Shown one piece after another: positions 32,809-64,000 of a stretch of DNA of 64,000 nucleotides. The DNA lies in assembly GCA_951394405.1 (NCBI GenBank), contig OX596339.1, forward strand, positions 4,030,001 to 4,094,000, read 5' to 3'. Both the position numbers and the translations under genes were made by a program. Each line of letters starts with the position of its first letter. Position 1 is the first letter of the stretch. The DNA comes from Coprinellus micaceus (lineage: Eukaryota > Basidiomycota > Agaricomycetes > Agaricales > Psathyrellaceae). The notes below the pieces were generated by a model. That model was not told the DNA's origin and made no database searches. It was given only the letters and a program-made list of their open reading frames with translations.

Positions 32809-32882
32809 TAGGTTGAGTTTTTTTTTTTTTTTCATCCTTCGATCTCTCTTGTTTCTTCACCGCTTGGAGTGACACGTTCATC

Positions 32883-34477: not shown

Positions 34478-34484
34478 CTATATA

Positions 34485-34500
34485 CCTCTACATGTAGAAG
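34485..34500. repeat. CTACATGTAG palindrome, site 2
   Basis: CCTCTACATGTAGAAG starts 8 bp after the stop codon of F-box gene 1; one arm position is mismatched. Confidence 0.8.
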
Positions 34501-34539
34501 TCAAATCGCTGAGAATGGTATTCGATCACCCTCCCCCCG

Positions 34540-34595
34540 AATAAGCGCCCAAGCAACGGCGAGGCTCAGGCACGTGCAGTGACGTCACATGCCCC
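34540..34595 (+). promoter_or_regulatory. Shared upstream block of F-box gene 2
   Basis: AATAAGCGCCCA (34540-34551), CACGTG (34571-34576), TGACGTCA (34580-34587) and CATGCCCC (34588-34595), nearly identical to the block of gene 1 and 79 bp (TGACGTCA to ATG) upstream. Confidence 0.75.
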
Positions 34596-34665
34596 TGTTA
34601 ATTTCTTTTTCTGTTCTTTTTACCTCTTTGCGCTGTGTTGCCACGTCTCGCGTTATACATCGACC

Positions 34666-36266: not shown

Positions 36267-36269
36267 ACG

Positions 36270-36285
36270 CATCTACATGTAGAAG
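36270..36285. repeat. CTACATGTAG palindrome, site 3
   Basis: CATCTACATGTAGAAG starts 4 bp after the stop codon of F-box gene 2; the centre is intact and the outer pairs are imperfect. Confidence 0.75.
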
Positions 36286-36322
36286 TCAAGTCACCCAGAA
36301 TAGCATTCGATCGCGGTCTGGA

Positions 36323-36368
36323 GAATAAGCGCCCGAGACGGAAGCTGATGACGTGGCATCACATGCCC
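36323..36368 (+). promoter_or_regulatory. Shared upstream block of F-box gene 3, diverged
   Basis: GAATAAGCGCCCG is kept at 36,322-36,334. The middle is changed to TGACGTGGCATCACATGCCC (36,349-36,368): TGACGT and CATGCCC remain, CACGTG is lost. A CT microsatellite at 36,377-36,411 separates it from the start codon. Confidence 0.6.
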
Positions 36369-36374
36369 AGGTTC

Positions 36375-36414
<40 letters not shown>

Positions 36415-36424
36415 CCTTTTCGTC

Positions 36425-37968: not shown

Positions 37969-38039
37969 ATTCCCCATGTACTTCTTGTAGGAACAATGCT
38001 CAATGCTTAGTAGTATCGCACCTGGCGAGTGGACTCGAA

Positions 38040-38087
38040 TTAGGCGCCCAACGGCCTGAGGCACGTGAACTGACGTCACAGCCCCTA
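38040..38087 (+). promoter_or_regulatory. Shared upstream block of F-box gene 4
   Basis: TTAGGCGCCCA (38,039-38,050), CACGTG (38,062-38,067) and TGACGTCA (38,071-38,078), followed by CAGCCCC, 82 bp before the ATG. Order and spacing agree with genes 1 and 2. Confidence 0.72.
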
Positions 38088-38159
38088 TCCTCTGGACTTT
38101 CCAATCCTCCATGCCGTGATCCACTAACCACGTCCTCCGTCGTCTTTGTCGTCGTCGAC

Positions 38160-39788: not shown

Positions 39789-39825
39789 TCTCTGTCTTAC
39801 ATCAATAAAAGTATTCTTGTCGCCA

Positions 39826-39871
39826 TAGGCGCCCAGCGACGGGCCGATGCCGGATCATATGCCTCTTTCCA
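39826..39871 (+). promoter_or_regulatory. Degenerate upstream block of F-box gene 5
   Basis: ATAGGCGCCCAGCGAC is kept at 39,826-39,840, but CACGTG and TGACGTCA are lost; only ATCATATGCCTC remains where CATGCCCC is expected. Confidence 0.5.
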
Positions 39872-39923
39872 ATTTTTTCGTCTTCTTCCTCTTCTTCTCC
39901 TCTTACGCTTCCAACCCCCCACC

Positions 39924-41454
39924 ATGCCCGCTCTCATTCATCTCTCTGCTCTCCCGAAGACCATGAATGAAGACGTCTGGTTTGAAATCGGGAAACTTGG
40001 AGAGCCTTTTGACGTCGTCACTCTGTCGAGGGTAGGTCGTAGTCCTGATTCGATTCCTCGCATTCCAACTCCCCCATAGTGCTGTAAGATTATCCGCGCT
40101 GCAGTCAACCAAAAGATCGTCTGGACCCACATACTCAAACGCGTTTGCCACGATTATGGCATCCTCCTCTCGACGTACCCCTTTGACGAAATGTCGTGTG
40201 AAGAGCTCACCCGTGCTGCATGCAATCCCAAACTCTGGATGCGCATAGTGGACCGCCTTTCACCCAACAAAGAATATCCCACTTTTGGCCTCGCCGTCCC
40301 AATCAGCAATTCCCGATGCTATCTAGAACGAGGGCTATTTGAGAAATTGACCGATGGCGGTCGATATCTTTTTCAGGCTCACGGAGGGGACGGTTCGCCT
40401 ATCCTCATCCAATTCTGGGACTTGGGGCGCCCAGCCCACCCGTCGAAACCCAAGCTCGTCACATCACACACACTGAGTCGGACGCCAGACCTGCCCCTAC
40501 TATCAGCCTACTCCACGGCACACTCATTCGTGTTCACGGTAGCATGGTGTGTCCAACGTTCGAGGATGAGGTGCATGTTCTCCGTACCTCGTATATCATC
40601 ACGCCCTAACACCCTTTAGATGCATCGTTTTCTCCCTAACACCTGGGTCTCAAACCCCTCTCTCTCAAATCGCGGCTACCGAGTTTGATTCCACCGATCA
40701 TGTTTTCCGCTGTCACTTGACGGAAAACTACGTTCAGTTCCAGAGCCGGGTACCCAGGTGCATCACCTGGTTCTACAAGCTCGGAAAGCTACGCAGATGG
40801 GTCGCTGAGCCAGTAGACGAAGATAGACTAGTGAGTCTATCTTGTCTATTCGGTCGTGAAACACGGCATGAATATGTCGCCCTTTAGCTCATCTGTCTCC
40901 CCAACACCGTGGTCGTGGCCTCTGATCGAGTGGACGCATTTCATCTCTACTCTGTAGACTCCATCCTTGACCAAGCTCACGAAGATGAATCTCTGGCGCT
41001 CGACCCGTTGGCTCCAGAGGCTAGGGTCCCCTACCCCTGGCCCAATCGTGCACACCCCTACGATTCCTTGATTGGCTTTCATGAACACTCCCTCACTGTT
41101 CGCGTGCCCCTCAACCAAACCGTTCTGAATCCCATCATTCTACACGTTAAAACTGGCCAGGGAATGCGGACATACAACATCGCTGAGGAGGAAGATCGTA
41201 CACTGATCCTTCAACCCCATTGCCTCATGGCACAGGTCGAGCTCGGGCAAGGTTCAACACTCTTCTTACGCCGAACAAGGTGCCTTGGGAACACCTTTAC
41301 GCAGGATTATTTTCGTATCCCCATTGCTATACCGAAATACCTTTCGCTTACGCATTCTTGCACCATGATTCCAGGCCGTATCGTTCTTCATAATTGCCGC
41401 AACCCGCCCTCTGAAAATTCTATCATTAGAGCTTGTATCGACCTTTTGCCTTGA
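39924..41454 (+). CDS. F-box-like protein, tandem array member 5
   Basis: Exons 39924-40031, 40080-40570, 40620-40830 and 40888-41454 give 458 residues. The F-box-like start has LPKTMNEDVWFEIG then CCKIIRAAVNQKIVW. Conserved blocks include YGILLSTYP, GGRYLFQAHGG, IQFWDLGRP, CIVFSLTPG, VRVPLNQTVLNPI, a diverged C-terminal motif (SCTMIPGRIVL) and a final C-I-D-L-L-P. It is the most diverged complete member, with a shorter last exon and a weakened upstream block. It is closest to the broken copy that follows. Confidence 0.82.
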
Positions 41455-41486
41455 GCTGTAGTACCTCATGTTTAATGTGATCGAAC

Positions 41487-41508
41487 ACGCATCTACATGT
41501 AGATGCGT
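41487..41508. repeat. CTACATGTAG palindrome, site 4
   Basis: A perfect 22-bp palindrome whose inner part is CGCATCTACATGTAGATGCG, 33 bp after the stop codon of F-box gene 5. The outer arms differ from the CCTC/GAGG form of other sites yet remain paired, a compensatory change. Confidence 0.85.
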
Positions 41509-41623
41509 ACTCGGAACCTTGACGCTCAGGCATGTGATGAGTGCTAGCGATGTCATACTCCCGCCCAGTTGGCTGGTTTTTTCTTTCTTTCTTTATCGCC
41601 GCTACATCCACGTCCATGTTCCC

Positions 41624-42422
41624 CATGTCTCAATGATCTGTGGTTTCGAATCGCCAAGATCGTCGAACCTGTGGACTTGTTTGCTTTGACGATGGTACGT
41701 ACGCCTCCTTGCTTTCTCGATAGACGACCTGTTTGATATCCTCTTCAGAACGACCCTCAACGCCAGGTCCTTGTGGGAGTTCCTCCTCAAACGCAGCTGT
41801 CACGAACATGGCATCCTCCTCTCGACGCACCCCTGGGACGAAATGTCGAGCGTAGCGCTCACTCATCCCAACAAGTCTACCACACCTTTGGCGGTCGTGT
41901 TCCAGCTATCGAGAGGTTAGCCGAAGGAGGAAGATCCCTCTTTCCAAACCTTTGACTCTATACTCCAACACGCCTCGAGACCAACGCTCGAGCCAATCAC
42001 ATTCAGCCCCTAGGCGTCAGCACGCCGTATCCGTAGTCTGAAGGGCCGACCCCACACAGCCTTCCATGGCAGATCTCCGACGACGCCTATAGTCACCAAT
42101 TCCGCATCACGGTCAGAGCGCCCCTGAATCCAACTCGCTCGAATCCAGTCGTCGTCCATGCCTCCTTTGCAGGCGGGACGCGTTCATATACCATCGATAC
42201 GATGGATCGTAGGAGCCAAGAAGGCGGAGGCTGGGACATGGTGCTGCATCCTCGTCATTCACATTCTCACTCGTGTCGTCATGTGGTGAAGCTCAAGCGA
42301 ACTGGGTGCATCCAAGGCATGTTCATGGAGCATCTGTTTCGCTTTACCTTGAAATCGCGCACTATTGTCACATCACTGGCCGACGTCTAATCGTCACTTG
42401 TATCGACCTCTTGCCCTCCTGA
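41624..42422 (+). pseudogene. Broken F-box family copy, array member 6
   Basis: Pieces of all parts of the family gene are present in order but cannot be joined. There is an F-box remnant (NDLWFRIAKIVEPVDLFAL, stop codon just before it), then after a GTACGT donor-like site a LLKRSCHEHGILLSTHPWDEMS segment. An internal deletion leads to YHTFGGRVPAIERLAEGGRS in another frame. A last-exon remnant (APLNPTRSNPVVVH, GGTRSYTID) and the end CHITGRRL...CIDLLP follow. The WD-like middle is missing. It is closest to member 5. Confidence 0.8.
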
Positions 42423-42868
42423 GCGCCGTATGTAGCCTGTGCCGAATTTATATATATCTTTGGTTTCGAAACCTTGTTACGACGAATCTAACAGTATCTG
42501 GAAGCCTCCTTTTACATAGCTACGAACACGTTGTAAACAAAGCCGAAGAGCATTTCCTATGCAGATCAGGAAATTTCGGCTCAGCCGGAAATTTGGCGTT
42601 GGGTTAAGGTTAGCTAGCCCCTAACTTGAATTTATCCGTCCTTCATTGGAGTTAGGAACCCCGAATAACCCTGGAAGGGATGCTTTACATGTACAGTCAA
42701 TCACAGCGCCCGTTCCTCACACCCGCTACCACACACACACACCCACAATAGGCGCCCTTGTCCCTATCCCCAGGGCGCCTATCCCCAGTCACGTGCCCCA
42801 TGGAAGACCAAGGTTTTTCTTTAGGCGTCCTTTTTGGGGTTTGGAAGAGAACCACATTCATCCTCACC
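42423..42868 (+). promoter_or_regulatory. Upstream region of F-box gene 7 with inverted GGCGCC boxes
   Basis: ATAGGCGCCC at 42,748-42,757 faces GGGCGCCTAT at 42,773-42,782, an inverted pair of the family box with a 15-bp spacer. CACGTG at 42,790-42,795 is followed by CCCCATGG; TGACGTCA is absent. A weak CTTTACATGTACAG element near 42,682-42,695 may be a degenerate palindrome after the broken copy 6. Confidence 0.55.
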
Positions 42869-44402
42869 ATGTCGATACGAAAGCCAGCTCCAACTCTGCC
42901 TGGAGATGTCTGGTATCAGGTCGTCCAGCTCAGTGATCCCCTTACCACCCTCTCCCTTTCAATGGTGCGGCGGCGATGCGACAACGACGCGTCCGAGATT
43001 ATACTGACGCGTGCATACCCAGACTTGCCGCTCCCCAAGGTCGCTGCTCACAGACAGGCGAATTTGGGTTTCCCTATTAAAGGAGGTCTGCTCTCGCTAC
43101 GGCATCATACAGCAAACATACCCGGTCGAAGAGATGTCCGACGACGAGATTGTCCGCACGGCGTGTCGCCCAGGATTGTGGCATCGTACCATTCAACAAA
43201 TCCGTGGTCCGCATTACCCGAGAATCAACCGACCGCCTACCACTTTGCGAATGCGCGAAGGCTACTACCAACAGCTCATTGCAGGAGGGAGGTTCATGGT
43301 CGAGGCGATCTCAAACCGAGAAACCACCAATATCTCCATCAAGCTTTGGGACCTTGGTATACCTGGGCGATGCTCCAGTTTGATTTCACCCACAATCATC
43401 GCCGCGTACCCCATCCGAGGGTCGTCGGAGGGTGATGTGGTCGGCTGTTCCACCACAGACTCGTTGATACTGGTCTCCATCGCCCTACGTGTTAGTTGTG
43501 GCACTTCCAAGTACGCATCGCTTCCAATCTCTTTTGTTAACTTGACCCTTACGCCACATCTAGCCTTGTTGTTCTTTCCATATCACCTGGAGTGGATACA
43601 GAGTTTACCCTTGTTAAGCAATGCAGTATTCCGACCGGCTACTCAATCCATAAGGTGTCGATCACGGAAACCTACGCCCTGATCAAGTTGGGCGGCTCTG
43701 CATACATCGTACTCGACTATCGCAGCGACAGAGTCGTATTCTTCACGCCGGTTACAACTAGCGACACATCCCAGGTGCGTGCTCCCTTTCCCATTTTCAC
43801 ACCTACGTGTTCTCAGTACGTTTTGCCAGGTCATAGCGCTTCCAAACGCCATTATCGCCACATCCCCTTCAACCAGAAGCTTCCGCCTGTGGTCTCTGTC
43901 CTCCGTGCTCCAGCGTGCTGAGCCCCTTCGCCGATCGGGTTACTCTGTCGTCCCTCTCCACGCCGACAGCTCTCTTATCTACCCATGGCCAGAAGCGCTT
44001 GGATCCCCCGTCAACATGTTCTGGAGAAAGCCTCTCAATCCGACACCCTCCAACCCCGTTCAAATTGACGTTCATTTCGAGTCTGGAACGCGAACCTACT
44101 CGATCAGCAGTGGGTTAGGGCTGGACACAGAGATCATCGCCCGACCCTGCTCTCTTTTGGGAGAATTCGTGACTACCTGGGAGCCCCTCGACGAGGGTGT
44201 CCTGCGCGAAACCTGGCTACGACGACAAGAGCTCGTTGGGGATTCTGTGCAGGAAGACTACTTTTCCCTTCCCTTTCCCATTGCCAATGATCTACGTGTT
44301 TCACAGTTCTGCCACCTCTCTGGACGCCTCATATTACAAAGACTCTGTCACGATCAGCCCGGATTTACCCCCTGTCGCGTATACCATGCAATGTTGCCCT
44401 GA
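42869..44402 (+). CDS. F-box-like protein, tandem array member 7
   Basis: Exons 42869-42964, 43023-43510, 43564-43774 and 43830-44402 give 455 residues. F-box part: LPGDVWYQVVQLSDPLTTLSLSM, then TCRSPRSLLTDRRIW. Family blocks: YGIIQQTYP, CRPGLW, GGRFMVEA, IKLWDLGIPG, VVLSISPG, YIVLDYRSD, FRLWSLSSVL, KPLNPTPSNPV, FCHLSGRLIL. The phases match the other members. The C-terminus ends HAMLP rather than the usual C-x-D-x-L-P. Function inferred from the F-box only. Confidence 0.84.
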
Positions 44403-44432
44403 AGCGCCGATGTAATTATTAAGCGCTCATTC

Positions 44433-44456
44433 CACGTGACGCACGCCATGTCGTAT
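44433..44456 (+). promoter_or_regulatory. CACGTGACG element before array member 8
   Basis: AAGCGCTC followed by CACGTGACGC at 44,433-44,442, a reduced form of the shared upstream block; the same CACGTGACGC occurs at 44,947-44,956 before member 9. Confidence 0.5.
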
Positions 44457-44519
44457 ATTCAATTCAAATGATTCCTTTTTGGCCTTTACTCTTCATTATT
44501 ATCATCATCATCATCATCA

Positions 44520-44900
44520 TGTCCCTCCATCTCAAAGGTGCCTCCTACTCCTGGCCACTACAGGCTGGTCTGGCGGTCCCAGCTCAATCCGAAACCCTTG
44601 AATCCTACTCCACCTCGGGTCTCAGACATGTCTCTACGAGGTCACTGTTGTTCCTGGTCGAGCCCCACGTCGTTTCGGCAGAGTTGTCAGATGAACATGA
44701 GCGGCGATCGCCCTATTACCGTCCTCCTCAGGAACACCCGGGCGACGGGCACTTGGAGCACAGATCTCTATCCAATTCGCATTGACATTGCGCAAACTTA
44801 TTCCGTCCAATGCTTTTGTCACCTGTCTGGCCGCGCTCTCTTTAATTCTCGTTTCACGCAACCTATCGTACACTGCGCTCGAGTGGATCTTTTACCTTGA
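44520..44900 (+). pseudogene. 3' fragment of an F-box family gene, array member 8
   Basis: Only last-exon material is present. A WRSQLNPKPLNPTPP segment corresponds to the KPLNPT-NPV block of complete members, and the end has FCHLSGRALF and VDLLP. The F-box and the first three exons are absent, and 44,600-44,730 does not keep the family frame. The fragment retains an upstream CACGTGACG element and a downstream palindrome, so the flanks outlived the gene body. Confidence 0.75.
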
Positions 44901-44921
44901 TTCTCGTATTACAAGCAGTAC

Positions 44922-44939
44922 ACCTCTACACGTAGAGGT
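44922..44939. repeat. CTACATGTAG-type palindrome, site 5
   Basis: ACCTCTACACGTAGAGGT, 22 bp after the stop of the array fragment 8. The centre is ACACGT instead of ACATGT; all other pairs are kept. Confidence 0.8.
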
Positions 44940-44946
44940 CAGAATC

Positions 44947-44956
44947 CACGTGACGC
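44947..44956 (+). promoter_or_regulatory. CACGTGACGC element before F-box gene 9
   Basis: CACGTGACGC lies about 55 bp before the start codon of member 9. It resembles a fusion of the CACGTG and TGACG cores of the fuller blocks of genes 1 and 2. Confidence 0.5.
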
Positions 44957-45001
44957 GTTGAACCCAAAGCCCAGACAGACTGCCACTTTATCCGTTGAAC
45001 C

Positions 45002-46615
45002 ATGACCACCATGCCCAGGCACGCTTTTCTAGGTGTTGTTGTAAACCGACCAATCCTGAACGCAGATGTGTGGCTTCAAGTACACAAGCACACTCGGGCG
45101 CTTGATATACTTCGGCTCGTCAAGGTACGGCTAATACCCCCAAGGTGGATGGACGGCTAACCCTCCGAATCCGTAGACATGCAAGGACTTTAGAGCCATG
45201 TTCAACCTCAGACACCTCTGGATCAAAGTCCTCGAGAAAACGTGTAACGAATACGGCATCATCATCTCCACCTACCCCACCCGCGACATGAGTGACGACG
45301 AGATCATCCGTGCTGCGTGTCGCCCGAGTATGTGGCCTCAGATGTTGGAGAGACTCAAGACCGGGAAGGATCCCCTCCGCGTTCCGATCGTCTCTGACGG
45401 TTGGTCTCTTCCAAAGGCGTCATATCAACGCCTTACACCAGGCGGCAGATATCTTGTCTCTGTCAACCCCTCCAACAGCGACGGCGGACCTGCCACCGTC
45501 AGTGTCTGGGACTTTGGAGTCCCTGGTGGCCGACAAGGCCCTTCCGAGCCTACTGAAACCGCGTCTTGGTCCCCTCCCAACTCGGAATCCTATGAAGGCG
45601 TATCCTCTTGCACGACGAATACGTCCATCTTTGTCCTGTTGACGAGGAGGGTCTCCCCGACTCACGTTTGGTAAGCACCGCACACTCCTGTCCCCACTCC
45701 CACCGTAACCCATCTGGCATGCCAACAGCGCGATCGTACTTTCCCTATCGCCCACCATCACCACCTCGTTCTCCGTGGTCAGTCGAACACAGTTTGAGTG
45801 CCCTGAACACGTCGCGACATGCCAACTGAGGGAAACGTACGCTTTAATAAGCACACACAACGAAACCCTCATCCTCTGGGACTTTGTGCACGACACCGTC
45901 ACCTGGTGGAACGTGACAGCTTTCGACCCTACCCAGTGCAAGGTGAGAGACCGCTTGTCTTTCAAGTGAGTCGGGGTTTGCTCATGCGCACCATCTTGAC
46001 TAGATCCTTGCTCTTTCCAACGCCGTCCTCGTCAGCTTCTGTCAGACCATGGAATTCAAGCTTTGGGCTCTGTCCTCTATTATCGCTCATTCGCAACTCC
46101 CGTCCACAAACTCTCCAACCGTCGCGTCCATTGACGCTGACACCGTTCAACCCTATCCATGGCCCGAAACTCCCACCACTCCCCCACCTGGCCGCTCTCC
46201 TTGCTACCCAAATAATGTTCTGCCCGGCCAGTTTCTTCTCTCTTGGCGACGCCGGCTCAACACGACCCCATCCAATCCAGTTCTAGTCCAACTAACCCTC
46301 CACTCTGAGAGCCGCCTCTATCAACTCACCGTCATTGAAGCGCAAAAGCTCAAGATTGTCGTCACGCCGCTGGACCTGTTTGGAGATCTTGTCGGTCAAG
46401 GCGTCCAGCGCAAGTCACTCGAGTGGGAGAGGGAGATCGCCATTCGCAGGGTTACCCGGAGCCGAGGTCAATGGTTCGAAGAACATTTTCAAATTCCTTT
46501 TACGCCGCTCCAGTCCTCGTATGCCAGTTGCTTTTGTCACCTCTCTGGCCGTGCGCTCTTGACTCCTTACCACCGAAACGTCAACATTGAGGCCTGCGTC
46601 GACATCCTACCTTGA
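45002..46615 (+). CDS. F-box-like protein, tandem array member 9
   Basis: Exons 45002-45124, 45177-45670, 45729-45942 and 46004-46615 give 480 residues from the first ATG, or 477 from the in-frame ATG at 45011, which starts MPRHAF like other members (MPRS). The F-box-like part has LNADVWLQVHKHTRALDIL then TCKDFRAMFNLRHLW. Family blocks: YGIIISTYP, CRPSMW, GGRYLV, VSVWDFGVPGG, IVLSLSP, LILWDFVHD, FKLWALSSII, RLNTTPSNPV, CFCHLSGRALL and the final C-V-D-I-L-P. It is the last member of the array and lies 0.6 kb before the recombinase-helicase gene. Confidence 0.85.
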
Positions 46616-47207: not shown

Positions 47208-47321
47208 ATGATCACCGCAGAGACCGTGAGTATGCTAGATCTCAAATATCGAACCACCCACCCTAAAGTCGAGAGAATATAGTCTTGCACTAGTAACACG
47301 CTTGAAGAAGACGAGGATCTC

Positions 47322-50300
47322 ATGATGTACAACTTGGCGGTCAATACCACGCACAAGCTTCTCATATGTCGAACGTGCAAATGTGCCGTTAACCCAACCA
47401 CCTTGTACGACCACTTCAGACGGGGCCTGCATTTACACGCACCTACTCGGCCACCTAAATCCTATACCAAAACCCTCCAGGCCAAATACCAGACTCTTTG
47501 CCAAAACCCGGTACGACCCCAACAGCGCATTCCTCTTATCCAAGGACTAGAGCTGCACACATCGTATCACGCATGTCCGTCCTGCAACACGGCGTGGAAA
47601 GTGGCCCCTCAGAACGGTCAATGCTCTTCCAAATCCTGCAACGCCAGTCTTACGGAGGAAAGCCTCATTCCTACGTCCGCTCAGCGGTTCGCTACGAACA
47701 ATCAATCCCCCTTCTTTGGAGTCCTGCCACAGGTTAATACCGAACCAGAGCCAGATCCCGTTCTCCAAGCCCACCTCTACGAACTTTGGCTCGCACAAAA
47801 CCCAGTCCCTACACAACAAGCCCAAAACGCCCTCAGTCTCGACGAACGCGCCGTCCGCAAGTTCTTGAAGGACTTTAGATGGATCGATCACATCAACAAT
47901 TGTGGAGTGTCGGGCGAGAATCTTCAGCAACTGCATACCAGGCAGCCACAAGACGCTTCGCTCCGAAACTATCTCACCAGGACGCTCACGGATATGTTGG
48001 TCGACATGCAGGACAGCCTCCAATGCGACCCATTCCTCCGTTATGAGATTGGAAGGCGGCCTCCTACCGAGCACACTCAGACGGAAGTCGTTGCTCACAA
48101 AATGGTGCGGTACGAAACGCTGAAGCGTTATGCGACCTATCTCGCCTCCCTGATCGTCTTTATTCGTCGCGCACCTCACACCGAATATCGCATGCGGATA
48201 CCACAGGAACTCGCGGAAATGATCAACCAGGTCTGCATCCTCACCGACGACCAGAACGAGGAGTACGCACCCACGCTCACTCCAGAAGAGGAAGATGCGC
48301 AGGACGAAGCGCCCATTGAGCCGCTCGACGAGAACGGCGAGCCCATTGGCGATCATCAGCAGCAGCAGGACGAACCGGCCCCGGACCTCGCCGGTCCATC
48401 TCAGTTCCCCATACTTGGGCCTACCCAGATCAAGCTAGTGGAGCTCATTCGCTTTCTCATCTTCTACACACCCAAACAGTCTTCGGAAGCCCAATTTCAC
48501 TCCCCCATCATGCACTATCTCGTCGTATCGTCCACTCGGAAGAACAACGACTGGACTCCAACCACCCAAATCAGCCAAAAGATTGCGGGGTTGGCCTGCG
48601 TACTCCGACTCGTCCTCTCCCATATCATCATTGGTGATAGCTTCAAAGGCAAAAGACTTCACGCAGAGTGAGTGCGAATCCCTTGTTGTTAGTATGCGAG
48701 TGTGCTCACAACACGCTTCTCTTCCAGGACTTTTGCCGAGTACCAGCACGCGTTGGATCACAACAAGCAAGGGATCATGCCCACGCTCTATACCACCCTC
48801 CGCCTCATGAAAAGTCTCCGTGGCGCGGAGGAGGGAGTGACCTACTTTAGTTCTCCGGACTGGACTGGGCAATCCGCGTTCCATGGGACCAAAGTCATCC
48901 ACGTCTCCAACTTCAAGGACATGGTAGAAAGGCTCTGCATCGAAGTCTCTTCCGAGCTCACAAGGCTGACCTTTGACAACCCCGTCTACGACATTGATTG
49001 GTCCAAGGACATCTACGACGAGCCGCGCTGCCTCACCAGTGGATTCTCCTTTATCAACGACAAGAGGAATCACTGGACGAACGTCCCGCCCTTGCTCCAA
49101 TACATGCTAAATACCCCCTCGATCGCGTCCGTCTATGTCACGGTCACGGTTGAGCCCGACGGCACCAGGCTCCAAAACAATCTCTACCAGTTCCAGAACC
49201 TCCGGAAACGTATCTACGAGCTCCAGAAGAAGCTCATCGTCCTCATCATGGTCACTTACGGCGCTCCCGCTCGGGGGACGGAACTCGCGTCTCACCTGAT
49301 TGAAAACGTTGCGGGCGGCTCTATTCGAAACTTCTTCCACAATTTCGGTACCACCTTCCTTCGAGGCTCGTACAACAAGACCACAAGTCTCACCGGTCTC
49401 GATCAGACAATGGCGAGAGCGCCCCTCCCCGATGTGTCCCGACTCTTTATCCGGTTCAGCGTATTCATCAGACCGCTCTACATCTCCGTCCAGCGTATAT
49501 TGCGGTACAAGTTCCTACACATTGACCAGCACAAACTCTTCATGGGCCTCAGCTCTCCCATAGAATCTTGCGATCTGGGTCTCAACTTGGAAAAGACAAC
49601 GAAGCGCTTTATCAACGCTCCCATCAGCATGTCCTGGTTCCGCCAGTTCATGGCCTATATCAGCACGCACCATGAAGACAAGTTTCCTCTGAAAGCTGCC
49701 GACAGCAGCGTCGCCCATCAGCTGGGACATTCGAGCAAAATGGACGCCCAGCACTATGGTCTGGACCGCAATCTCCCTCCCAGCAGCAATTATCAGGGGC
49801 TCAAAAAGTCCATCCTCACCAGCGGCACCTTTCATCGAATCTTTGGCCTCGGGACGGAGATCATCGATAGCGTCTATAGGCACACCAATGGTCTTGCTAC
49901 CGTCCCCACGGGACTAGACATTATTACGACCGGAGAGCTCTCGGAACAGACGATGAGCTCCCTCTCTCTCAGTATCTCGAGGAACCTTCTCCCGACGGTC
50001 GTCAACTCTATGCAGCAATGTGTTCAAGAGTCCCACGCCGGCGTTGTCCACCTCTTCTGCCCTGGCAAGATCACAAGAGAGACGACCCACCGGGGTAACA
50101 ACACCTCTATTCAAGTCTCTCCTCGGCTCATTCAAAAACTTCGAGAATTCTTCAACGCTCCCGGATCCACTCTCGGCTTCACTGATCATAACCAAGCGCA
50201 GGCTACGCAGATTGCGGTGGACGGTCGAGACTCGCTCCTCCTCGTTACCGCTACGGGATCAGGCAAGACGATACCAGGCTTCATCGCCACGCGTTACTTT

Positions 50301-51991
50301 GACCAGGCGAATGCGGTCACCGTGTACATCGTCCCTTACAACGCCATGCACGAGCAGTTCCACAAACGTCTCCAGGACGCCGGCGTCAGTCATTCGTCCT
50401 GGCATCAAGGTATCACCCCGGAAAGCGCTCCTCAGAATATCATCGTCACCTGTGATACCGCCACCATGAAGCATTTCGTCAGCTTTCTCCGCGAAATGGC
50501 CTCTCAAAAGCGCCTAGCTCGCGTCATCTTTGACGAAGCCCATCTCATCATTCGTCAAGACGACTTCCGACCCGTCATGCACCAGCTCAAGTTCCTGGCA
50601 GAGCTGGGCGTCCAGGTCTTCTTGCTCACTGCTACCCTTCCGGTAGCGCTCCAGCCCAAGCTCCTCGAATACGTGGGGCTCACAGCCCCCATTGTCCTTC
50701 GAGGAGTGACGCCCCGCCCCAACATATCATATCGAATCATTCGAGTAGCGGCGGCCAACGATGTTCTCCCCAAAGTTCAAGACGTCTATCTCTCTCTCCA
50801 AACCCTGGATGAAGCGAAACGCATCCTGATCTTTTGTCGATCCGTATCCGACACAACCAAACTCGCCGAGAAACTGGGCATCGAGGCCTGTTATGCCAAC
50901 TTGGGACAAGTGGAAATCGCCAAACTCATTTCCCGATTCCGCTCCGGAGAGGTCAAAGCCATCGCGACCACCTGCGTGCTCGGAGTGGGGCTGGACATTC
51001 CTGGCGTGTCGCATGTCCTCCATGCCGGAAATCCGAGGGACATCATCGACTTTGCTCAGGACACAGGGCGAGCCGGGAGAGACAAGGCTACGAAAAAGGC
51101 ATACTCTGTGGTCATCTCCAGCCCCATCCCCAATCCTACGTCCGAGGACGGCGATCCTGCAGTGGTAGCCATGGAAAAGTACCTCGAGAACCGAAAAGCA
51201 TGTCGACGCGTCTGTTTGCAAGAGCCTCTCGACGGCTCTGCCCTTCCCTGCTCGATGCTAGGTCCAGAAACACACCTCTGCGACGTCTGCTTGAAGGAGA
51301 GCACAGGATCGAGTTCTTTGATCGCCCCAAGCCAACCACCTCCATCTCTATCAGGTTCCCATCGTCTCGTACCCAACTTGGGTCCACACCAGCACATTGC
51401 CGCCACCCACGCAGCTCTCGCATTAGCCCACGTCCGGCCCGACGACGGCGGGTTGTGGCGCCTCCTTCACAAAGTCATCCCGGCGTATTCGGAACTCTGC
51501 ATACTCTGCCTCCTCAGAAGACAAGACCACAACCACAACTTTCTGGAACGCCATCCGAAAATTCTGGATGCTTATAGCTCTATGAAAGCGGACATCAAAG
51601 GACGTTTGCCTCCAGGGACGTGTCATACGTGCCTTCTCCCTCAGCACGTCAGTCAAAAACCTCTTTCTCTCTCTCTCTCTCGCTGATACACGGTTAGGGT
51701 CAATTCAATGAAGAAGATGGCTCCCAACGACGTATTCACCCTTGGATAAATGACGGTGATCATTGTTCCCAACCAGAAACCCTCTGGGCCTTTGTCTTTG
51801 CTTCTCGGACTATGGAGACTGTCATATACTCCGTTTTGCCCGCGGAAATCAGCAGCCTCCTCAACCAATCAAAATCGCTCTTCCTTTCTGGTGTATATGA
51901 CTGGTTTTGCAAGACATCGAGCGACGGAGAAGCTATCAATGCTTTGACATTAATTAGAACCATCGAGCGGAAGTATTCCCTCCCTGTATAA
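47322..51991 (+). CDS. Zinc finger / tyrosine-recombinase-like / RecQ-type DEAH helicase
   Basis: Exons 47322-48667, 48728-51647 and 51698-51991 give 1,519 residues. A further 5' exon at 47208-47225 (intron 47226-47282) would add 19 residues with a clean splice. Residues 11-36 carry a C2H2-like finger (CRTCKCAVNPTTLYDHFRRGLH); a CPSC...C...C pair follows near 88. Residues about 620-800 look like a tyrosine recombinase catalytic domain: Arg631 (ARGTEL), Arg754 (SWFRQF), LGHSS with His783, and Tyr792 nine residues later, the usual spacing. Helicase motifs: TATGSGKT (about 956-963), DEAH (1051), LLTATLP (about 1083), QDTGRAGRD (about 1228), as in RecQ-type SF2 helicases. Cys clusters follow near 1280-1310. 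Such helicases occur near fungal telomeres (telomere-linked helicases). The last intron carries a CT tract. Confidence 0.88.
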
Positions 51992-53775: not shown

Positions 53776-54200
53776 ATTGTCGATCCGGGATGTTCTGTCT
53801 CTCTCTGTACTTTTATCACTAGAACGCATTTCGTCTCTCTCTCTCTCTCTCTCTCTCTCTTACCTGCATTGTCGATCCGGGATGTTCTCTCTCTCTCTCT
53901 CTCTCTCTGTACTCTTATCGCTAGAACGCATTTCGTCTCCCTCGATTACCTGCATTCTCTCCATCCTTCTCTCTCTCTCTCTCTCTGTACTTTTATCGCT
54001 AGAACACATTTCGTCTCCCTCGATTACCTGCATTCTCTCCATCCTCCTCTCTCTCTCTCTCTCTCTGTACTTTTATCGCTAGAACACATTTCGTCTCCCT
54101 CGATTACCTGCATTCTCTCCATCCTCCTCTCTCTCTCTCTCTCTCTGTACTTTTATCGCTAGAACGCATTTCGTCTCCCTCGCTTACCTGCATTCGCCTC
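53776..54200 (+). repeat. Minisatellite of about 67-82 bp with CT tracts
   Basis: About five units, each with a CT tract, TGTACTYTTATCGCTAGAACR and CATTTCGTCTCCCTCGATTA followed by CCTGCATT, with starts near 53,810, 53,918, 53,986, 54,067 and 54,148. The Leu/Ser-rich frames are by-products. Confidence 0.8.
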
Positions 54201-56673: not shown

Positions 56674-57196
56674 TACTTTTGGAACATCTTGTCAAAATTC
56701 TCGCGAGCAACAAGAGGGACGCGAAACGACATACCGACGGCTCGACCTCCAGCAGGTGTTCGTGCTTCGAGTGCGTGAATCAAACTTCTTTTCGCAGGTA
56801 TTCGTCCTCGAGTGCGTGCAAAAAGAGGCAGACGGTATCAAAGCACTGCGCGACAGAGCAAAAAGGTAGCGAGGCTGGCCTGTGCGCGAATCCGTGGTCA
56901 CTTGTCACCTGTCACGGTTCTGTGTGACATGTCTGTCAAGAAAAACAAGAAGAAAATCCTCGTTTGCCTGCCTCAGCCGTCAAGGAAAGGGGGTTAGGAT
57001 GAGAAATGACCGTTTCAATATGTTTATGATTGGCGCCCAGAGTAACCTCCCCGATATATTATCCCATTGATCGACCCGCAACGGTTGAGCGCTGATACCC
57101 CCGCATTCCGTCCGAGATGGGATTTCATCACGAGCGCTTCTTCTCCTTCTGCCGAATTCCATCTCCCTATACACCGCCGCCCACCCAATTCGCCAA
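56674..57196. other. Divergent promoter region
   Basis: This 523-bp stretch lies between two divergently oriented genes (RBR, minus; small basic protein, plus) and probably holds both promoters. A TTGGCGCCCAG box is at 57,029-57,039. No coding exon is recognised. Confidence 0.45.
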
Positions 57197-57697
57197 ATGG
57201 CTCGTACAAAGCATACCACACAACGCAAGGAACCTCGCCAACCGAGCGAATACAAAAAGTTGGCCACGATGACCTGCCAGTATCCGGGGCGGAGGAATAG
57301 AGCCGGGGAAAGGGTGCTCCAGGAAGCCCAAGGTAACGTACATAGTTCGAGATGGGTTGCACTACCGCGTCGGAACCAGCTCACCCTAACCCACCAGAAG
57401 TTGAACGCCTAGAAACCTTGCGCGTCGCCAGAGAAGCGAGAAGAGCTGCAAAAGCCGCTGCTCTCGCAAAGGATCTCGCTGCGATACTCGAAGAAGAAGC
57501 ATCCCGCAAAACTCACTACAGGCTGAGGTCCTACTCGCGGAGCCAAGTGTGTACTATACCATTCCCTGGAACCCTAAACCCCCTTGCTGAAAACGCCACA
57601 ACATCGGCAGGAAAACGACAAGGAGAAGCAGGAGGAGAGTAACAAGAAGAAGACGAAGAAGAAGAACCCCAACACGCGCTCGATAGTCCGCGTTTGA
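57197..57697 (+). CDS. Small basic protein with histone-H3-like N-terminus
   Basis: Exons 57197-57332, 57398-57546 and 57611-57697 give 123 residues. The N-terminus MARTKHTTQRK resembles the histone H3 tail (MARTKQTARK) and is followed at the matching distance by YKKLAT (H3: RKQLAT). The rest is unlike H3. Residues 45-80 are Ala/Arg/Glu/Leu-rich and helical (EARRAAKAAALAKDLAAIL), and the end is Lys-rich (SNKKKTKKKNP), suited to nuclear or nucleic-acid binding. If intron 2 is retained, another frame ends at 57,642. The role is unknown; a histone-tail mimic is a speculation based on the first 24 residues. Confidence 0.6.
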
Positions 57698-58084
57698 AAG
57701 AGAGACTACTTATAATAGGTGAGTCCTCGTGTACACCTCTGTGCCATTTCCCCGCTGACGTCGGACGTCCACACCAGAAACTCGTTCGAGATGTATACAC
57801 TACGCCGTCCAATAAAGCCACTCTAACCCCACACTGGCACGCATAGTGCGCGAGTTTTGATGGACAGGCTCTCTTGCCTCTTTCCTTCACCCCAACCCGA
57901 AAGACCTAGGCCCACAGCGTACGATTCGAGAGCCGGTTGAAAAAAGGGGGACCCTGGGTATGGCTCTCAACCGCAGTTGCACACCGTGAAATGATGTCCT
58001 GCATAAAGACGTTCGAGGACCCTAGCTGTCACAGATGCGTACTGTCGGTGTTGCGGTCCTGCCCATGGTTGTAGTTTCATTCTC
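57698..58084. other. Intergenic region before the 330-bp array
   Basis: No gene seen. From about 57,900 some words of the array appear (GCTCTCAACCGC at 57,963; TTTCAGAAGTACGTG at 58,087), so very diverged array units may begin here. Confidence 0.35.
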
Positions 58085-61000
58085 TTTCAGAAGTACGTGC
58101 TGCTAGCTAGTGGCCGAGGGAGCACTCGTGCTAACTGAACTAGCCCTGGCACCCTGCCCGCGCCTCCCAATGTGGTTGAATACCCTACCCTAATCGGCCA
58201 ACCAACCACCCCCCTGTCGACGGTTCGTTCTACAAACTCCCGAGTTTTCCCTAGAGTCTACTCATTACACCCTCGAGGTACATTTTCTCAATTGTTTTCA
58301 TTGCGATCGGGTTAGGGACATTCTGTGTTTCGGTCGTTCCACCCTACAGCGGGGCGTATTGTTCGGCGGCCCAACGCCCTTTTCACCCAAGAGACAAGGG
58401 AATCCTCGGGTCCAAAGGTCCAAGGTACGTGTATCAAAGGTTTCACAGTCAGGCGCTCACCCCAAGACGTTGCAGTAACTAGCCGTATGTGTATATATAC
58501 CCCTTAACCCTCCAAGCCCGCCATTGACGTGACAATCGCCCCGGGCCTGCAAATGTGTGTCGATATCCTTGCTCAACGCTTCATTATATGCACAACGAGT
58601 CTCCTGGAGCGTGGTCGTTACGCTGTGAGGTACGTTTGGAAGCTGTCCATATCACGATCCACCGAGGTAATGTCGCACTAGGGCAAGACGACCAAGTCCG
58701 GGTAATACGGTGTACAACCACACACCCCAACGCTCAACTGCCCAAGGGCCAATGCCATCCTCGTCTTTGACATCCAAGGTACGTGCACGGAAGATTTCAA
58801 GGCCGAGGGCTAACCGTGGCCGTCGTAGTGCATGTATGTGTGTACGCCTCCTCGTCATTGATGGCAACCCCCGCGCCTGCAAATATGTTTGTATACCACT
58901 CTTCAACCGCTCGCCCTACGCCCAACAGCCTCTAGGAGCTTGGTTATTAGGTCTAGAGGTACGCTTCTCAATTGTTCATATCGAGATCTACCCCGAACAT
59001 TTGGCGCTAGGTCGTTCCTCTCATCCCCGGGCAAGACGCTCCACGATCGTGCATCCGGACCCTCTTGTCACCAAATCTACGCCGCCATCCTCGTCTTTAA
59101 CATCCAAAGTACGTGACCACAACGTTTCAAGGCCGAGCGCTCACCCTAGCCGTTGTAGTAGATGTATGTGTGTACGCCTCCCCGCGATTGATGGCAACGC
59201 CCCGCGCCCCCAAACGGGTTTGAATACCCTTCATCAACCACTCGCCCTACGCCCAACAGCCTCTAGGAGCTTGGTTATTAGGTCTAGAGGTACGCTTCTC
59301 AATTGCTCGTATCGAGATCTACCCCGAACATTTGGCGCTAGGTCGTTCCTCTCATCCCCGGGCAAGACGCTCCACGACCCAACACCCTGACCGCCAATGG
59401 CCGAATGTATACCGCCATCCTCGTCTTTTACATCCAAAGTACGTGACCACAACGTTTCAAGGCCGAGCGCTCACCCTAGCCGTCGTAGTGCATGTATGTG
59501 TGTACGCCTCCTCGCTATTGATGGCAACCCCCGCGCCCCAAAACGGGTTTGAATACCACTCTTCAACCACTCGCCCTACGCCCAACAGCCTCTAGGAGCC
59601 TCCTTATTACGCTACAAGGTACGCCTTTCAATTGTTCGTATCGCGATCCATCGACTCAATAACGACGTATGGACTCATATTTAGTGCCGTCCCCATTACA
59701 GTATCGCGTCGTATCAAGCCATTCGAGGGGTCCGATAACAACCGGCCTCGGTTCATTAGCATCCAAAGTAGGTGACCACAACGTTTCACGGCCCAGCGCT
59801 CACCCTAGCCGCTATAGTAGGTCTACCAGTATACGCATTCCCCGCGATTGATGGCAACCCCCGCGCCTGCAAATATGTTTGAATACCACTCTTCAACCGC
59901 TAGTCCTACGCCCGACAGCCTCTAGGAGCTTGTTTATTAGGTCTAGAGGTACGCCTTTCAATTGTTCTTGTTGCGAAATTCCAACAACGTGCCAGGTTAG
60001 GTCGGTGCTCTCAACCGCGGTCGACGGGGCGTATCGTTCAACAACCCAACGCCTTATAACCAAGTCTACCCCGCCATCCTCGTCTCTTCCATCCAAGGTA
60101 CGTGACCACAACGTTTCAAGGCCCAGCGCTCACCCTAGCCGCTATAGTAGGTCTACCAGTATACGCGTTCCCCGCGATTGATGGCAACCCCCGCGCCTGC
60201 AAATATGTTTGTATACCACTCTTCAACCGCTAGTCCTACGCTCAACAGCCTCTAGGAGCCTGGTTATTAGGTCTAGAGGTATGCCTTTCAATTGTTCTTG
60301 TTGCGAAATTCCAACAACGTGCCAGGTTAGGTCGGTGCTCTCAACCGCGGTCGACGGGGCGTATCGTTCAACAACCCAACGCCTTATAACCAAGTCTACC
60401 CCGCCATCCTCGTCTCTTCCATCCAAGGTACGTGACCACAACGTTTCAAGGCCCAGCGCTCACCCTAGCCGCTATAGTAGGTCTACCAGTATACGCGTTC
60501 CCCGCGATTGATGGCAACCCCCGCGCCTGCAAATATGTTTGTATACCACTCTTCAACCGCTAGTCCTACGCTCAACAGCCTCTAGGAGCCTGGTTATTAG
60601 GTCTAGAGGTACGCTTCTCAATTGTTCATATCGAGATCTACCCCGAACATTTGGCGTTAGGTCGTTACTCCCATCCCCGGACAAGACGCTCCACGATCGT
60701 GCATCCGGACCCTCTTGTCACCAAATCTACGCCGCCATCCTCGTCTTTAACATCCAAAGTACGTGACCACAACGTTTCACGGCCCAGCGCTCACCCTAGC
60801 CGCTATAGTAGGTCTACCAGTATACGTGTTCCCCGCGATTGATGGCAACCCCCGCGCCCCCAAACGGGTTTGAATACCCTTCCTCAACCACTCGCCCTAC
60901 GCCCAACAGCCTCTAGGAGCCTGGTTATTAGGTCTAGAGGTACGCTTCTCAATTGCTCGTATCGAGATCTACCCCGAAAATTTGGCGCTAGGTCGTTACT

Positions 61001-62730
61001 CCCATCCTCGGACAAGGCGCTCCACGACCCAACACCCCGACCGTCAATGGCCGAATCTACGCCGCCATCCTCGTCTTTAACATCCAAAGTACGTGACCAC
61101 AACGTTTCAAGGCCCAGCGCTCACCCTAGCCGCTATAGTAGGTCTACCAGTATACGTGTTCCCCGCGATTGATGGCAACCCCCGCGCCCCCAAACGGGTT
61201 TGAATACCACTCTTCAACCACTCGCCCTACGCCCAACAGCCTCTAGGAGCTTGGTTATTAGGTCTAGAGGTCCGCCTTTCAATTGTTTTTGTCGCGAAAT
61301 TCCAACAATGTGCCAGGTTAGGTCGGTGCTCTCAACCGCGGTCGGCGGGGCATATCATTCGACAACCCAACGCTCAACTGCCCAAGGGCCAACGCCATCC
61401 TCGTCTTTGACATCCAAGGTACGCTCATGGAAGATTTCAAGGCCGAGGGCTAACCGTGGCCGTCGTAGTGCATGTATGTGTGTACGCCTCCTCGCTATTG
61501 ATGGCAACGCCCCGCGCCCCCAAACGGGTTTGAATACCACTCTTCAACCACTCACCCTACGCCCCAGAGCGTCTCGGAGCCTCGTCATTAGCATTATATG
61601 TACGTCTTGCAATTGTTCTTATCGCGATCCATGGACTCAATAACGACGTATGGCCTCATTTTTAGTGCCGTCCCCATTACAGTATCGCGTCGTATCAAGC
61701 CATTCGAGGGGTCCGATAACAACCGGCCTCGGTTCATTAGCATCCAAAGTAGGTGACCACAACGTTTCAAGGCCGAGCGCTCACCCTAGCCGTTGTAGTG
61801 CATGTATGTGTGTACGCCTCCCCGCGATTGATGGCAACGCCCCGCGCCCCCAAACGGGTTTGAATACCCTTCCTCAACCACTCGCCCTACGCCCAACAGC
61901 CTCTAGGAGCCTGGTTATTAGGTCTAGAGGTACGCTTCTCAATTGTTCGTATCGAGATCTACCCTGAAAATTTGGCGCTAGGTCGTTACTCCCATCCCCG
62001 GACAAGACGCTCCACGACCCAACACCCTGACCGCCAATGGCCGAATGTATACCGCCATCCTCGTCTTTTACATCCAAAGTACGTGACCACAACGTTTCAA
62101 GGCCCAGCGCTCACCCTAGCCGCTATAGTAGGTCTACCAGTATACGCGTTCCCCGCGATTGATGGCAACCCCCGCGCCTGCAAATATGTTTGTATACCCT
62201 TCCTCAACCACTCGCCCTACGCCCAACAGCCTCTAGGAGCCTGGTTATTAGGTCTAGAGGTACGCTTCTCAATTGTTCGTATCGAGATCTACCCCGAAAA
62301 TTTGGCGCTAGGTCGTTACTCCCATCCTCGGACAAGGCGCTCCACGACCCAACACCCCGACCGTCAATGGCCGAATCTACGCCGCCATCCTCGTCGTTTA
62401 CATCCAAAGTACGTGACCACAGCGTTTCAAGGCCCAGCGCTCACCATAGCTCTTGTAGTGAACGTACGAGTATAATCCTTGCCCGATGTTGATGGCAACG
62501 CCCCACCCATGCAACAAGTTTGGATACCCCTCTTCAACCGCTCGTCCTACACCCATGAGTGTCTCGGTGCCTGTTCATTACGGGTAGAGGTACGCCTTTC
62601 AACTCTTCGAATCGTGTTCTCCTCCTCACCGAATATCAGGCCAGGTCGCAAGCACAAGCGTCTCCTATTTAGTGTTCGTTCTCACAAGCTAGCAAGCATA
62701 ATCCTTTGTAGACCACGTTGTTCGTACCAT
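58085..62730 (+). repeat. 330-bp tandem array of exon-intron modules
   Basis: The word CATCCAARG starts units at 58771, 59101, 59431, 59760, 60090, 60420, 60751, 61081, 61411, 61741, 62071 and 62401, a period of 330 (once 329, once 331). Two more degenerate units precede (about 58,085 and 58,417). In each regular unit GTACGTG starts a 50-nt segment ending TAG with a GCTCACC branch-like site. A 131-nt segment B ends GGTCTAGAG. GTACGC starts a 52-nt segment ending TAG, and a 97-nt segment A ends ATCCAAR. B plus A is 228 nt, 76 codons, and the phase joins the next unit. B reads FPAIDGN...YAQQPLGAWLLGLE; A reads AILVFYIQ or AILVSSIQ. Most B segments carry a stop (TGA or TAG). Edge units are the most diverged, as in unequal-exchange arrays. 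Confidence 0.85.
61982..62408 (+). pseudogene. Best-preserved open segment of the repeat-protein array
   Basis: Segments 61982-62078 (A), 62129-62259 (B) and 62312-62408 (A) are free of stops and join in one frame through two GT-AG introns (62079-62128 and 62260-62311). Together they encode 108 residues, including VVTPIPGQDAPRPN, PAIDGNPRACKYVCIPF and YAQQPLGAWLLGLE. The units on both sides break the frame: TGA in the B segment of the preceding unit (about 61,862) and TAA early in the next B segment (about 62,473). It is listed as a pseudogene because no start codon or intact continuation was found. Family unknown. Confidence 0.5.
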
Positions 62731-62774
62731 TTGTGTTCTCGAATACCTCAAAGTTGGTCTCGGATCATCGTACG

Positions 62775-62790
62775 CCTCTACATGTAGAGG
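62775..62790. repeat. CTACATGTAG palindrome, site 7
   Basis: Perfect CCTCTACATGTAGAGG, 43 bp beyond the stop codon of the minus-strand kinase-like gene. It keeps the 3'-flank position seen for plus-strand genes. Confidence 0.85.
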
Positions 62791-62833
62791 TATGCCTCGG
62801 CGAAATTGCGATCGATTATAAATAGCATAGTGT

Positions 62834-64000
62834 TTACCCCTCATCGTCCCCTTTCCAACGATCATCACCACCCCCTTCGCTAAAGCTCGCATACCCGAAA
62901 TCGATGATCCTCAACTCCCCGTGGCTATTGCGCACCACATTTCTTGCATGGAGATCATTGTGGCGTACGCCCACCGCATGCATCTGTTCCACAGCACGTT
63001 CCAGGGCCTTCCTACAACAAAGTCAATGTTATCTCTAGCTAAACCAATAAACAATATCATGACTCACTTGTCGGATTCGGTCACTGTATCCACACGCTCG
63101 CCCTCGTTCGACATGACCAGAAACGGCCGCTCACCCTCTGCGACAACACCCGAAGCATAAAGTATAGGGAACCATGGACAATTCTTTAGTGAAGCCAGCT
63201 TCTCGTACGCCTCCTTCTCAGCACAGTAACACGGAGAATCTGGTTCAAAGTAGATCTTGATGACAATGGGAGGGGTTGCATAAATGAACGTCTCGGCAGT
63301 TGGAGAAACAAAGTGTTGCCCCGCAGGCGGCAATGTCCAGCACTCGTCCTTGTTAACCCTATTTCTTGTGTCAATTGCACCATAAACCGACGGGAGTTTG
63401 TCCAACTCACCGGTCGTGAAGCTCCAAGACGTAGTCTTCGTCCATGCTAATCCAGCGGTATCTCTTCAGACGCCAGAGCTGACAGTGTGCCCACCGCTGG
63501 ACCAGTCGCTCCATGAGCAGCTGGACCACGTATGACACTGGCCGGAGTAGTCCCAGCACCGACAGCAGGGTTAACAACCCCTGTACAAGCCAATAGCGCA
63601 ACCCAGTCACGAGCCGGGTCAATACGGACCACCGCGAGGCAGGTACGGATGCCTCACCAGCTCGTTGGAGGAACAGCCGAATTGTCTGCACTTGTGTCGG
63701 AGCTTTCTGCTCCCAAAATTCCCTTGTGGAGGGGTTAGTCGTGCAAAGGGTCGCAAAAACCCAGCCAAAAAACCTCTCCACAAATCTCTGTATCCATCTT
63801 TCATCCTTCAGGATCTCCTCTATGAAATGTGAGTTTGACAATCCCGTCGGTATTTGCCGCACTCACCAACACTCCAATTCTCCTTCTCCAGCCAGAGGTC
63901 CCTCATGAGATCCTCACCCAAGGATAGCGTGCCATCCTTCTTCATCACCCCAACGAAGAAATGTGACGGAAACACGCCCGCCGCGACGTGGAACACGGGG
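62834..64000 (-). CDS. Truncated protein-kinase-like protein (5' end outside window)
   Basis: Minus-strand exons >64000-63867, 63819-63411, 63358-63068 and 63011-62834 give about 336 visible residues. The C-terminal part is a protein-kinase fold: an IVIKIYFEP lysine strand, a KEAYEKL helix with the paired Glu, hinge-like PFLVMS, catalytic loop VRHNDLHARNVV and IIDFGYA. The protein then ends within about 20 acidic residues, so the C-lobe after the DFG motif is missing. The middle (about residues 95-145) has hydrophobic helices (WLVQGLLTLLSVLGLL) that may be membrane-associated. The N-terminal part visible is not assigned. Such short kinase-like proteins are common in Agaricomycetes; activity is doubtful without the activation segment and C-lobe. 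Confidence 0.78.

What the first reader, a model, noticed from the sequence alone, without database searches (positions are those of the whole stretch)
58085..62730. A 330-bp 'satellite' that is built from intron-containing coding modules
Seen directly: about 12 regular units of 330 bp, each divisible into 50 + 131 + 52 + 97 nt. The 50- and 52-nt parts start GTACG and end TAG, with a GCTCACC-type branch sequence in the first and a similar layout in the second. The 131- and 97-nt parts add to 228 nt = 76 codons, and the splice phases (1 nt carried, then 0) close from unit to unit. Variants of the 97-nt part with quite different DNA still read as open, related peptides (AILVFYIQ, AILVFNIQ, AILVSSIQ). 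Inference: the array arose as a gene for a 76-residue repeat protein, with introns copied along with each repeat. I know of no described family with this unit.
Basis: partly seen in the sequence, partly recalled or inferred. Interest (0 to 1): 0.9.

Follow-up and report, generated by a model that had tools for sequence, protein, structure and literature searches.

The report
Subtelomeric tandem array with intron-like signals
A 330-base piece of DNA beside a kinase-like gene near a chromosome end of a fungus-like genome has multiplied into about fourteen copies; it carries intron-like signals, but it does not read as a working repeat protein.

Summary
The array is real: 14 head-to-tail units at 58093-62738 (right end nominal), 13 of them 329-332 nt. 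BLAST-level searches found it at one place in the 50.3-Mb genome. A profile scan of 15 context loci found one diverged single unit on contig C7, at the matching place downstream of a paralogous kinase-like gene. The best reading is local amplification of that gene's 3' flank near the end of contig C6, reshuffled by unequal exchange or conversion.

The intron signals hold up partly. Segment 1 has donor, branch and acceptor in 14 of 14 units, and splice-signal positions are better conserved in diverged copies than random blocks (P 0.0008-0.016, by copies counted). The C7 unit keeps that donor but lacks branch and acceptor. Segment 2 is complete in fewer units.

The protein reading mostly fails: 1 of 14 units is open, 'exons' vary as much as 'introns', codon position 3 is not the most variable, pN/pS is about 1, and no protein relatives were found. 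Two results point the other way: coding-like statistics of the 97-nt part, and a long open path under permissive splicing.

Verdict: a real, mildly unusual tandem repeat; coding claim not supported; splicing untested.

The parts
58093..58424 (+). U01, left edge unit, most diverged
   Evidence: 39-50% identity to the other 13 units in the MAFFT alignment; begins GTACGT, has CTAAC and TAG at 51 nt
58425..58778 (+). U02, diverged edge unit (354 nt)
58779..62408 (+). U03-U13, eleven core units of 329-331 nt, 58-97% identical to each other
   Evidence: mosaic: 1460 of 5460 informative site pairs fail the four-gamete test
62409..62738 (+). U14, right edge unit next to the kinase-like gene (right end set at 330 nt); collinear with the single unit on C7
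59953..60611 (+). 329-nt identical tract and its repeat at an offset of exactly 330 (U06/U07): the longest identical tract in the array
62079..62128 (+). segment 1 of U13, the 50-nt intron-like part (GTACGT...CTCAC...TAG); its signals recur in all 14 units
62260..62311 (+). segment 2 of U13, the 52-nt intron-like part (GTACGC...TAG, no CTNAY branch)
62312..62408 (+).
   Evidence: score 0.347 against a noncoding 99th percentile of 0.117
62834..63990 (-). kinase-like gene (part), whose 3' flank the array occupies; window 62767-63990 matches C7 (L029:7820-9069) at 76%

Best explanation
A locus-specific, subtelomeric tandem array. A roughly 330-bp stretch of the 3' flank of a kinase-like gene, present as a single unit beside the paralogous gene on contig C7, was amplified on C6 to 14 units away from the gene. 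Unequal exchange and/or gene conversion keeps the centre similar and mosaic while the edges decay (shape shown; mechanism inferred). The unit carries plus-strand splice-type signals, so it may be, or may once have been, transcribed and spliced (inferred). It is not now a gene for a continuous 76-residue repeat protein.
For: One locus: DNA searches with two parts of the array and a protein search (16 of 16 matches) return only the array. A third DNA search, with the right edge, adds only one flank hit on C7. The C7 unit is found by a 14-unit profile that did not include it (L029 7449-7628, E = 2e-18 over the 15 loci scanned), at the collinear place beside the paralogous kinase-like gene. Edges are more diverged than the centre. 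Mosaicism: 1460 of 5460 site pairs incompatible. All 12 identical tracts of 75 nt or more lie at whole-unit offsets. Frame open in 1 of 14 units, no codon periodicity, pN/pS about 1. Subtelomeric: array end 25.6 kb from the C6 contig end; window 32.1-39.8 kb recurs at 98-99% at the telomere-capped end of C12.
Against: Splice-signal positions are conserved beyond random blocks, which pure junk would not give. The 97-nt part scores as coding in the predicted frame in many units. A permissive splice model gives a plus-strand path of score 927, above all 120 null arrays (maximum 899). The single C7 unit could be a reduced array rather than the ancestral state; the direction rests on collinearity only. 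The genome-wide BLAST searches did not themselves hit the C7 unit, so other diverged single units may exist unseen and the single-locus claim holds only for close copies.
Confidence: 0.62

Rival explanations
1. Decayed coding array: the unit was once an exon-intron module of a real gene, amplified with its introns, and has lost its frame since.
For: Segment 1 has canonical signals. The C7 131-nt counterpart scores 0.030 in its own open frame, above the noncoding mean. A precedent exists for intron-containing repeat expansion (PMC2395259, passages read).
Against: No relatives at E <= 1 for two queries, though the database seems thin for this organism: a neighbouring 331-aa ORF had a single hit at 58%.
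Confidence: 0.2
2. Spliced non-coding transcript: the array is transcribed from the + strand and the signals are maintained for splicing, without a protein.
For: Segment 1 signals complete in 14 of 14 units; in the core, changes within them fall at tolerant positions (donor +4 and +6, branch position 3); conservation of signals in diverged copies P = 0.0008-0.0156 by set, while the frame is broken in 13 of 14.
Against: No transcript evidence is available. The C7 unit lacks branch and acceptor for segment 1. U14 is not independent of the core in segment 1 (6 of 50 differences). U01, U05, U11 and U14 lack the acceptor at 52 nt in segment 2 (others at 50-72 nt), and U10 has a GTCCG donor.
Confidence: 0.12
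3. The conserved GTACG-containing blocks are DNA elements (protein-binding or recombination sites), not splice sites.
For: The four hexamers fully conserved between core consensus and U01, U02, U14 lie in GTACGTG and GAGGTAC. GGTACGCYTYTCAATTGT has 7 exact matches in the genome, 6 in the array and 1 in the C7 unit (list ordered by mismatch). A similar GTACGCCTCT / AGAGGTATGCCT arrangement flanks a palindrome near 62778.
Against: It does not explain the CT[C/A]AC ... YAG arrangement in 14 of 14 units.
Confidence: 0.1
4. One reading: a working gene for a 76-residue repeat protein with introns in each repeat.
For: U13 reads open; the best permissive splice path of the + strand exceeds 120 null arrays.
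Against: 13 of 14 units have stops. The 2-intron model gives at most 130 codons in a row over 11 units, and the best 3-intron model's longest frame lies within the null. No codon periodicity; pN/pS 1.06.
Confidence: 0.04

Closest known systems
Intron-containing repeat expansion in a gene (Cryptococcus neoformans CNN00420; PMC2395259, passages read)
   Same: A tandem repeat in a fungal genome with an intron-type segment in the repeated DNA; copies identical or nearly so, attributed there to unequal crossing over, conversion or slippage.
   Different: There, a gene with introns compared between resequenced strains; here no transcript evidence, no open frame in 13 of 14 units, and the unit lies in the 3' flank of a kinase-like gene.
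Subtelomeric or gene-flank minisatellite/macrosatellite (general kind; recalled)
   Same: Head-to-tail array, homogenised centre, decayed edges, near a chromosome end.
   Different: A traceable single-unit counterpart, and conserved splice-type signals.
Exon-intron tandem duplications in repeat-protein genes (general kind; recalled)
   Same: Near-constant unit length and splice-type signals in each copy.
   Different: Reading frame, codon periodicity and protein conservation are missing here.

Membership tests
Gene for an intron-bearing repeat protein | Reading frame open across units after splicing | tested here: not met
   1 of 14 units open; a permissive path exceeds the null but mixes splice choices between units
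Gene for an intron-bearing repeat protein | Codon-position bias of substitutions | tested here: not met
   heterozygosity 0.216/0.231/0.194 for positions 1/2/3 in 11 core units; pN/pS 1.06 over 55 pairs, 1.47 over 17 close pairs
Gene for an intron-bearing repeat protein | Homologous proteins | tested here: not met
   none at E <= 1 for two queries (word-limited search, thin database for this organism); no Pfam match for the 76-residue unit
Gene for an intron-bearing repeat protein | Coding-like codon statistics | tested here: inconclusive
   97-nt part yes in many units; 131-nt part and second C7 part no
Spliceosomal intron (segment 1) | Donor, branch site, acceptor at short-intron spacing | tested here: met
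   14 of 14 units on C6, not the C7 unit
Spliceosomal intron (segment 2) | Donor, branch site, acceptor at short-intron spacing | tested here: inconclusive
   YAG at 52 nt in 10 of 14, consensus branch in few; all three on C7 and in U14 (acceptor at 50 nt)
Spliceosomal intron | Spliced RNA | not testable with these tools
   no RNA data
Tandem satellite-type array | Head-to-tail copies, exchange between copies, edge decay | tested here: met
Dispersed satellite or transposon-derived repeat | Copies at many loci or terminal repeats | tested here: not met
   one locus by BLAST plus one diverged unit; BLAST would miss units as diverged as that one; no inverted repeats of 14 nt or more in 57000-63200
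Known structured RNA | Rfam match | tested here: not met
   at gathering thresholds only a tRNA elsewhere in the window

The most novel reading that the evidence does not exclude
A spliced locus whose repeat unit keeps its splice signals under selection while its exons are free to change. It would be either a non-coding RNA made of up to 14 copies of an exon-intron module, or a fast-changing repeat product read by variable splicing, grown from the 3' flank of a kinase-like gene near a chromosome end.
Probability: 0.12. Interest if true: 0.7.

Novelty: new member of a known kind. Interest (0 to 1): 0.33.

Why it matters
The array comes with a single-unit counterpart at a paralogous locus, so the two states can be compared base by base. 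If RNA shows splicing at the conserved signals, it would be a clean case of intron number growing by DNA repeat expansion, an idea reported for one Cryptococcus gene (PMC2395259). If not, it warns that GT...AG modules with a closing phase can be read into a satellite.

Tried and rejected
Rejected: exhaustive shared-intron models over the 11 core units. With up to 2 introns the longest frame was 247 codons on + and 245 on -, against a column-shuffle median of 209, with 8 of 60 shuffles above 300. With up to 3 introns it was 359 codons on + against a null median of 241.5 and 90th percentile of 397. Fewest stops was 3, below the null 10th percentile of 4.9 but with null arrays down to 0 (200 shuffles).

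Rejected: the unit as an old dimer of one shorter module (local score 21, P = 0.34). Rejected: flanking inverted repeats of 14 nt or more (none). Not found: a translated relative. Rejected: protein conservation in a consistent frame. BLOSUM randomisation over 6 unit pairs gave 10 of 144 overlapping tests at P <= 0.05 (7 expected; 3 tests degenerate).

Calling the neighbour a FunK1 kinase in my notes was recall; Pfam gives only a generic protein-kinase match, so I call it kinase-like. Literature: six searches; two returned nothing. Only PMC2395259 was opened, and only the passages. For the others I saw titles and abstract openings as listed (8 of 20 papers); none of these mentions such a unit.

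Full report
WHAT IS THERE. Tandem Repeats Finder reports a 330-bp array at 58754-62614, 11.7 copies. Cutting at the recurrent GTACG donor-like site gives 14 units at 58093-62738: ten of 330 nt (for U14 I set the end at that length) and one each of 329, 331, 332 and 354 nt. A profile of the 11 core units finds all 14, the edges only in part (U01 58157-58408, E = 9.5e-13; U14 to 62648). Identity is 58-97% among core units, 50-62% for U02 and 55-62% for U14 against the core, and 39-50% for U01 against all others. Genome searches with two parts of the array found only the array, as did a protein search (16 of 16 matches). A third, with the right edge and its flank, added one flank hit on C7. These searches score only the best candidates and did not hit the diverged C7 unit described next, so other equally diverged units cannot be excluded.

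A SINGLE UNIT ELSEWHERE. The flank hit at C7:938819 led to a paralog of the kinase-like gene: window 62767-63990 matches L029 7820-9069 at 76%. Left of it, at the collinear place, C7 has one diverged unit. It is found by the 14-unit profile, which did not contain it (L029 7449-7628, E = 2e-18), and it aligns with U14 and the following flank. Of 15 context loci scanned, only this one had a significant match; the six other kinase-like loci (L042-L047, about 3.2 kb each) had none. So the array most simply grew from the 3' flank of this gene, with U14 the unit nearest to it. That C7 shows the ancestral state is inferred.

HOW IT GREW. Edges are the most diverged units. Informative sites conflict: 1460 of 5460 pairs show all four combinations among core units. 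All 12 identical tracts of 75 nt or more lie at whole-unit offsets (1, 3, 4, 5, 6 or 8 units), the longest being 329 nt between U06 and U07. This is the pattern expected from unequal exchange and conversion (established theory, recalled). The array ends 25.6 kb from the C6 contig end (contig length). That end shows no telomere repeats in its last 400 nt, while the other end of C6 and the right end of C12 do show them. The C12 end carries window 32127-39782 at 98-99%. Hence the region is taken as subtelomeric.

INTRON-LIKE SIGNALS. Segment 1 has GTA[C/G]G[T/C], CT[C/A]AC and YAG at 50-51 nt in 14 of 14 units. A finder requiring donor, branch and acceptor reports the segment-1 intron in all 14 units, plus one segment-2 intron (U14) and three overlapping candidates in U11, on the + strand, and none on the - strand of the array. 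In window 1-58000 it finds 40 candidates against 35.2 in resampled sequence, with an excess at 52-67 nt (20 against about 9.5) and GTACGT the commonest donor on the + strand (7). So the overall excess is small, and 50 nt lies just below the enriched lengths. Under uniform neutral divergence to 58, 65 and 67% identity, the segment-1 signals would survive in place with probabilities 0.009, 0.023 and 0.029; but U14 differs from U13 at only 6 of 50 positions there, so it is not an independent case. By random placement of blocks, signal positions are better conserved than expected: P = 0.0011 for U01, U02, U14; 0.0156 for U01 and U02 alone; 0.0045 for U01, U02, C7; 0.0008 for all four; 0.044 for C7 alone. 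For segment 1 alone the values are 0.0059, 0.050, 0.038, 0.0092 and 0.23 in the same order. Against it: the C7 unit has no branch and no YAG in the place of segment 1, though it has a complete segment 2 (GTACGC, CTGAT, YAG at 52 nt). Segment 2 in the core mostly lacks a consensus branch, U10 has GTCCG, and U01, U05, U11 and U14 lack the acceptor at 52 nt.

CODING. Exons and introns vary alike (0.214 and 0.186) and the third codon position is not the most variable. pN/pS is 1.06 over 55 pairs and 1.47 over 17 close pairs. Another frame of the same exons gives 0.74 and 0.63, but in the 131-nt part it carries a TGA at unit position 82 in 11 of 11 core units. No relatives were found at E <= 1; the database seems thin for this organism (one hit for a neighbouring ORF). 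No Pfam match for the unit. Shared-intron models are not longer than shuffles. The coding set was 16 stretches of the window chosen by me (11988 nt). Also, a permissive splice search over the + strand gave a path of score 927 with 17 introns, above all 120 null arrays (95% 685, maximum 899), but with different splice choices in different units. It is the best of four searches (two strands, two stringencies); the strict + search was ordinary (239 against a null 90% of 322). These keep a decayed coding origin possible.

CONCLUSION. A real tandem array with a likely source and a surplus of splice-type signals, not a working repeat-protein gene. Its closest described kind is repeat expansion that carries introns along (PMC2395259, passages). 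RNA is the missing test.

Noticed in passing
window 32437, 34487, 36272, 41492, 54306, 62777: The palindrome TCTACATGTAGA occurs at only 10 places in the 50.3-Mb genome (3 for the reversed control): 7 on C6 within 56 kb of the contig end, one on C9 5.9 kb from its start, two on C12 within 8 kb of its telomere-capped end, the latter in the segment shared with C6. So all 10 are near contig ends. Two lie within 10 nt downstream of ORFs of the tandem family and one in the 3' flank of the kinase-like gene; the C7 paralog keeps CTACATGTAG.
   Followed up: partly
window 30904-39782: Copied at the C12 right end at 90-99% identity, the contig ending in TTAGGG repeats: probably an exchange between chromosome ends.
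   Followed up: partly
window 32817-46615: A tandem family of at least five related ORFs (by eye, and self-matches), one with a weak F-box-like match below cut-off.
   Followed up: no
window 47283-51686: Two adjacent ORFs, OrsD-like (below cut-off) and a DEAD/Helicase_C helicase, reminiscent of telomere-linked helicases (recalled).
   Followed up: no
window 57197-57697: A possible small plus-strand gene with two introns (placed by eye) whose product begins MARTKHTTQRKEP, resembling the histone H3 tail (resemblance recalled; no Pfam match above cut-off).
   Followed up: partly
window 53889-54195: A second, shorter tandem repeat of about 80 bp, 3.9 copies.
   Followed up: no
window 58671-59390 and 61864-62475: Unspliced plus-strand ORFs of 239 and 203 codons run through units U02-U04 and U12-U14; paired one-base indels in some units step around the TGA at unit position 82.
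   Followed up: partly
L029:7441-7750: The C7 unit can be read as a start codon plus two exons of 85 codons across its complete segment 2; codon scores are 0.030 for the first part and -0.143 for the second.
   Followed up: partly
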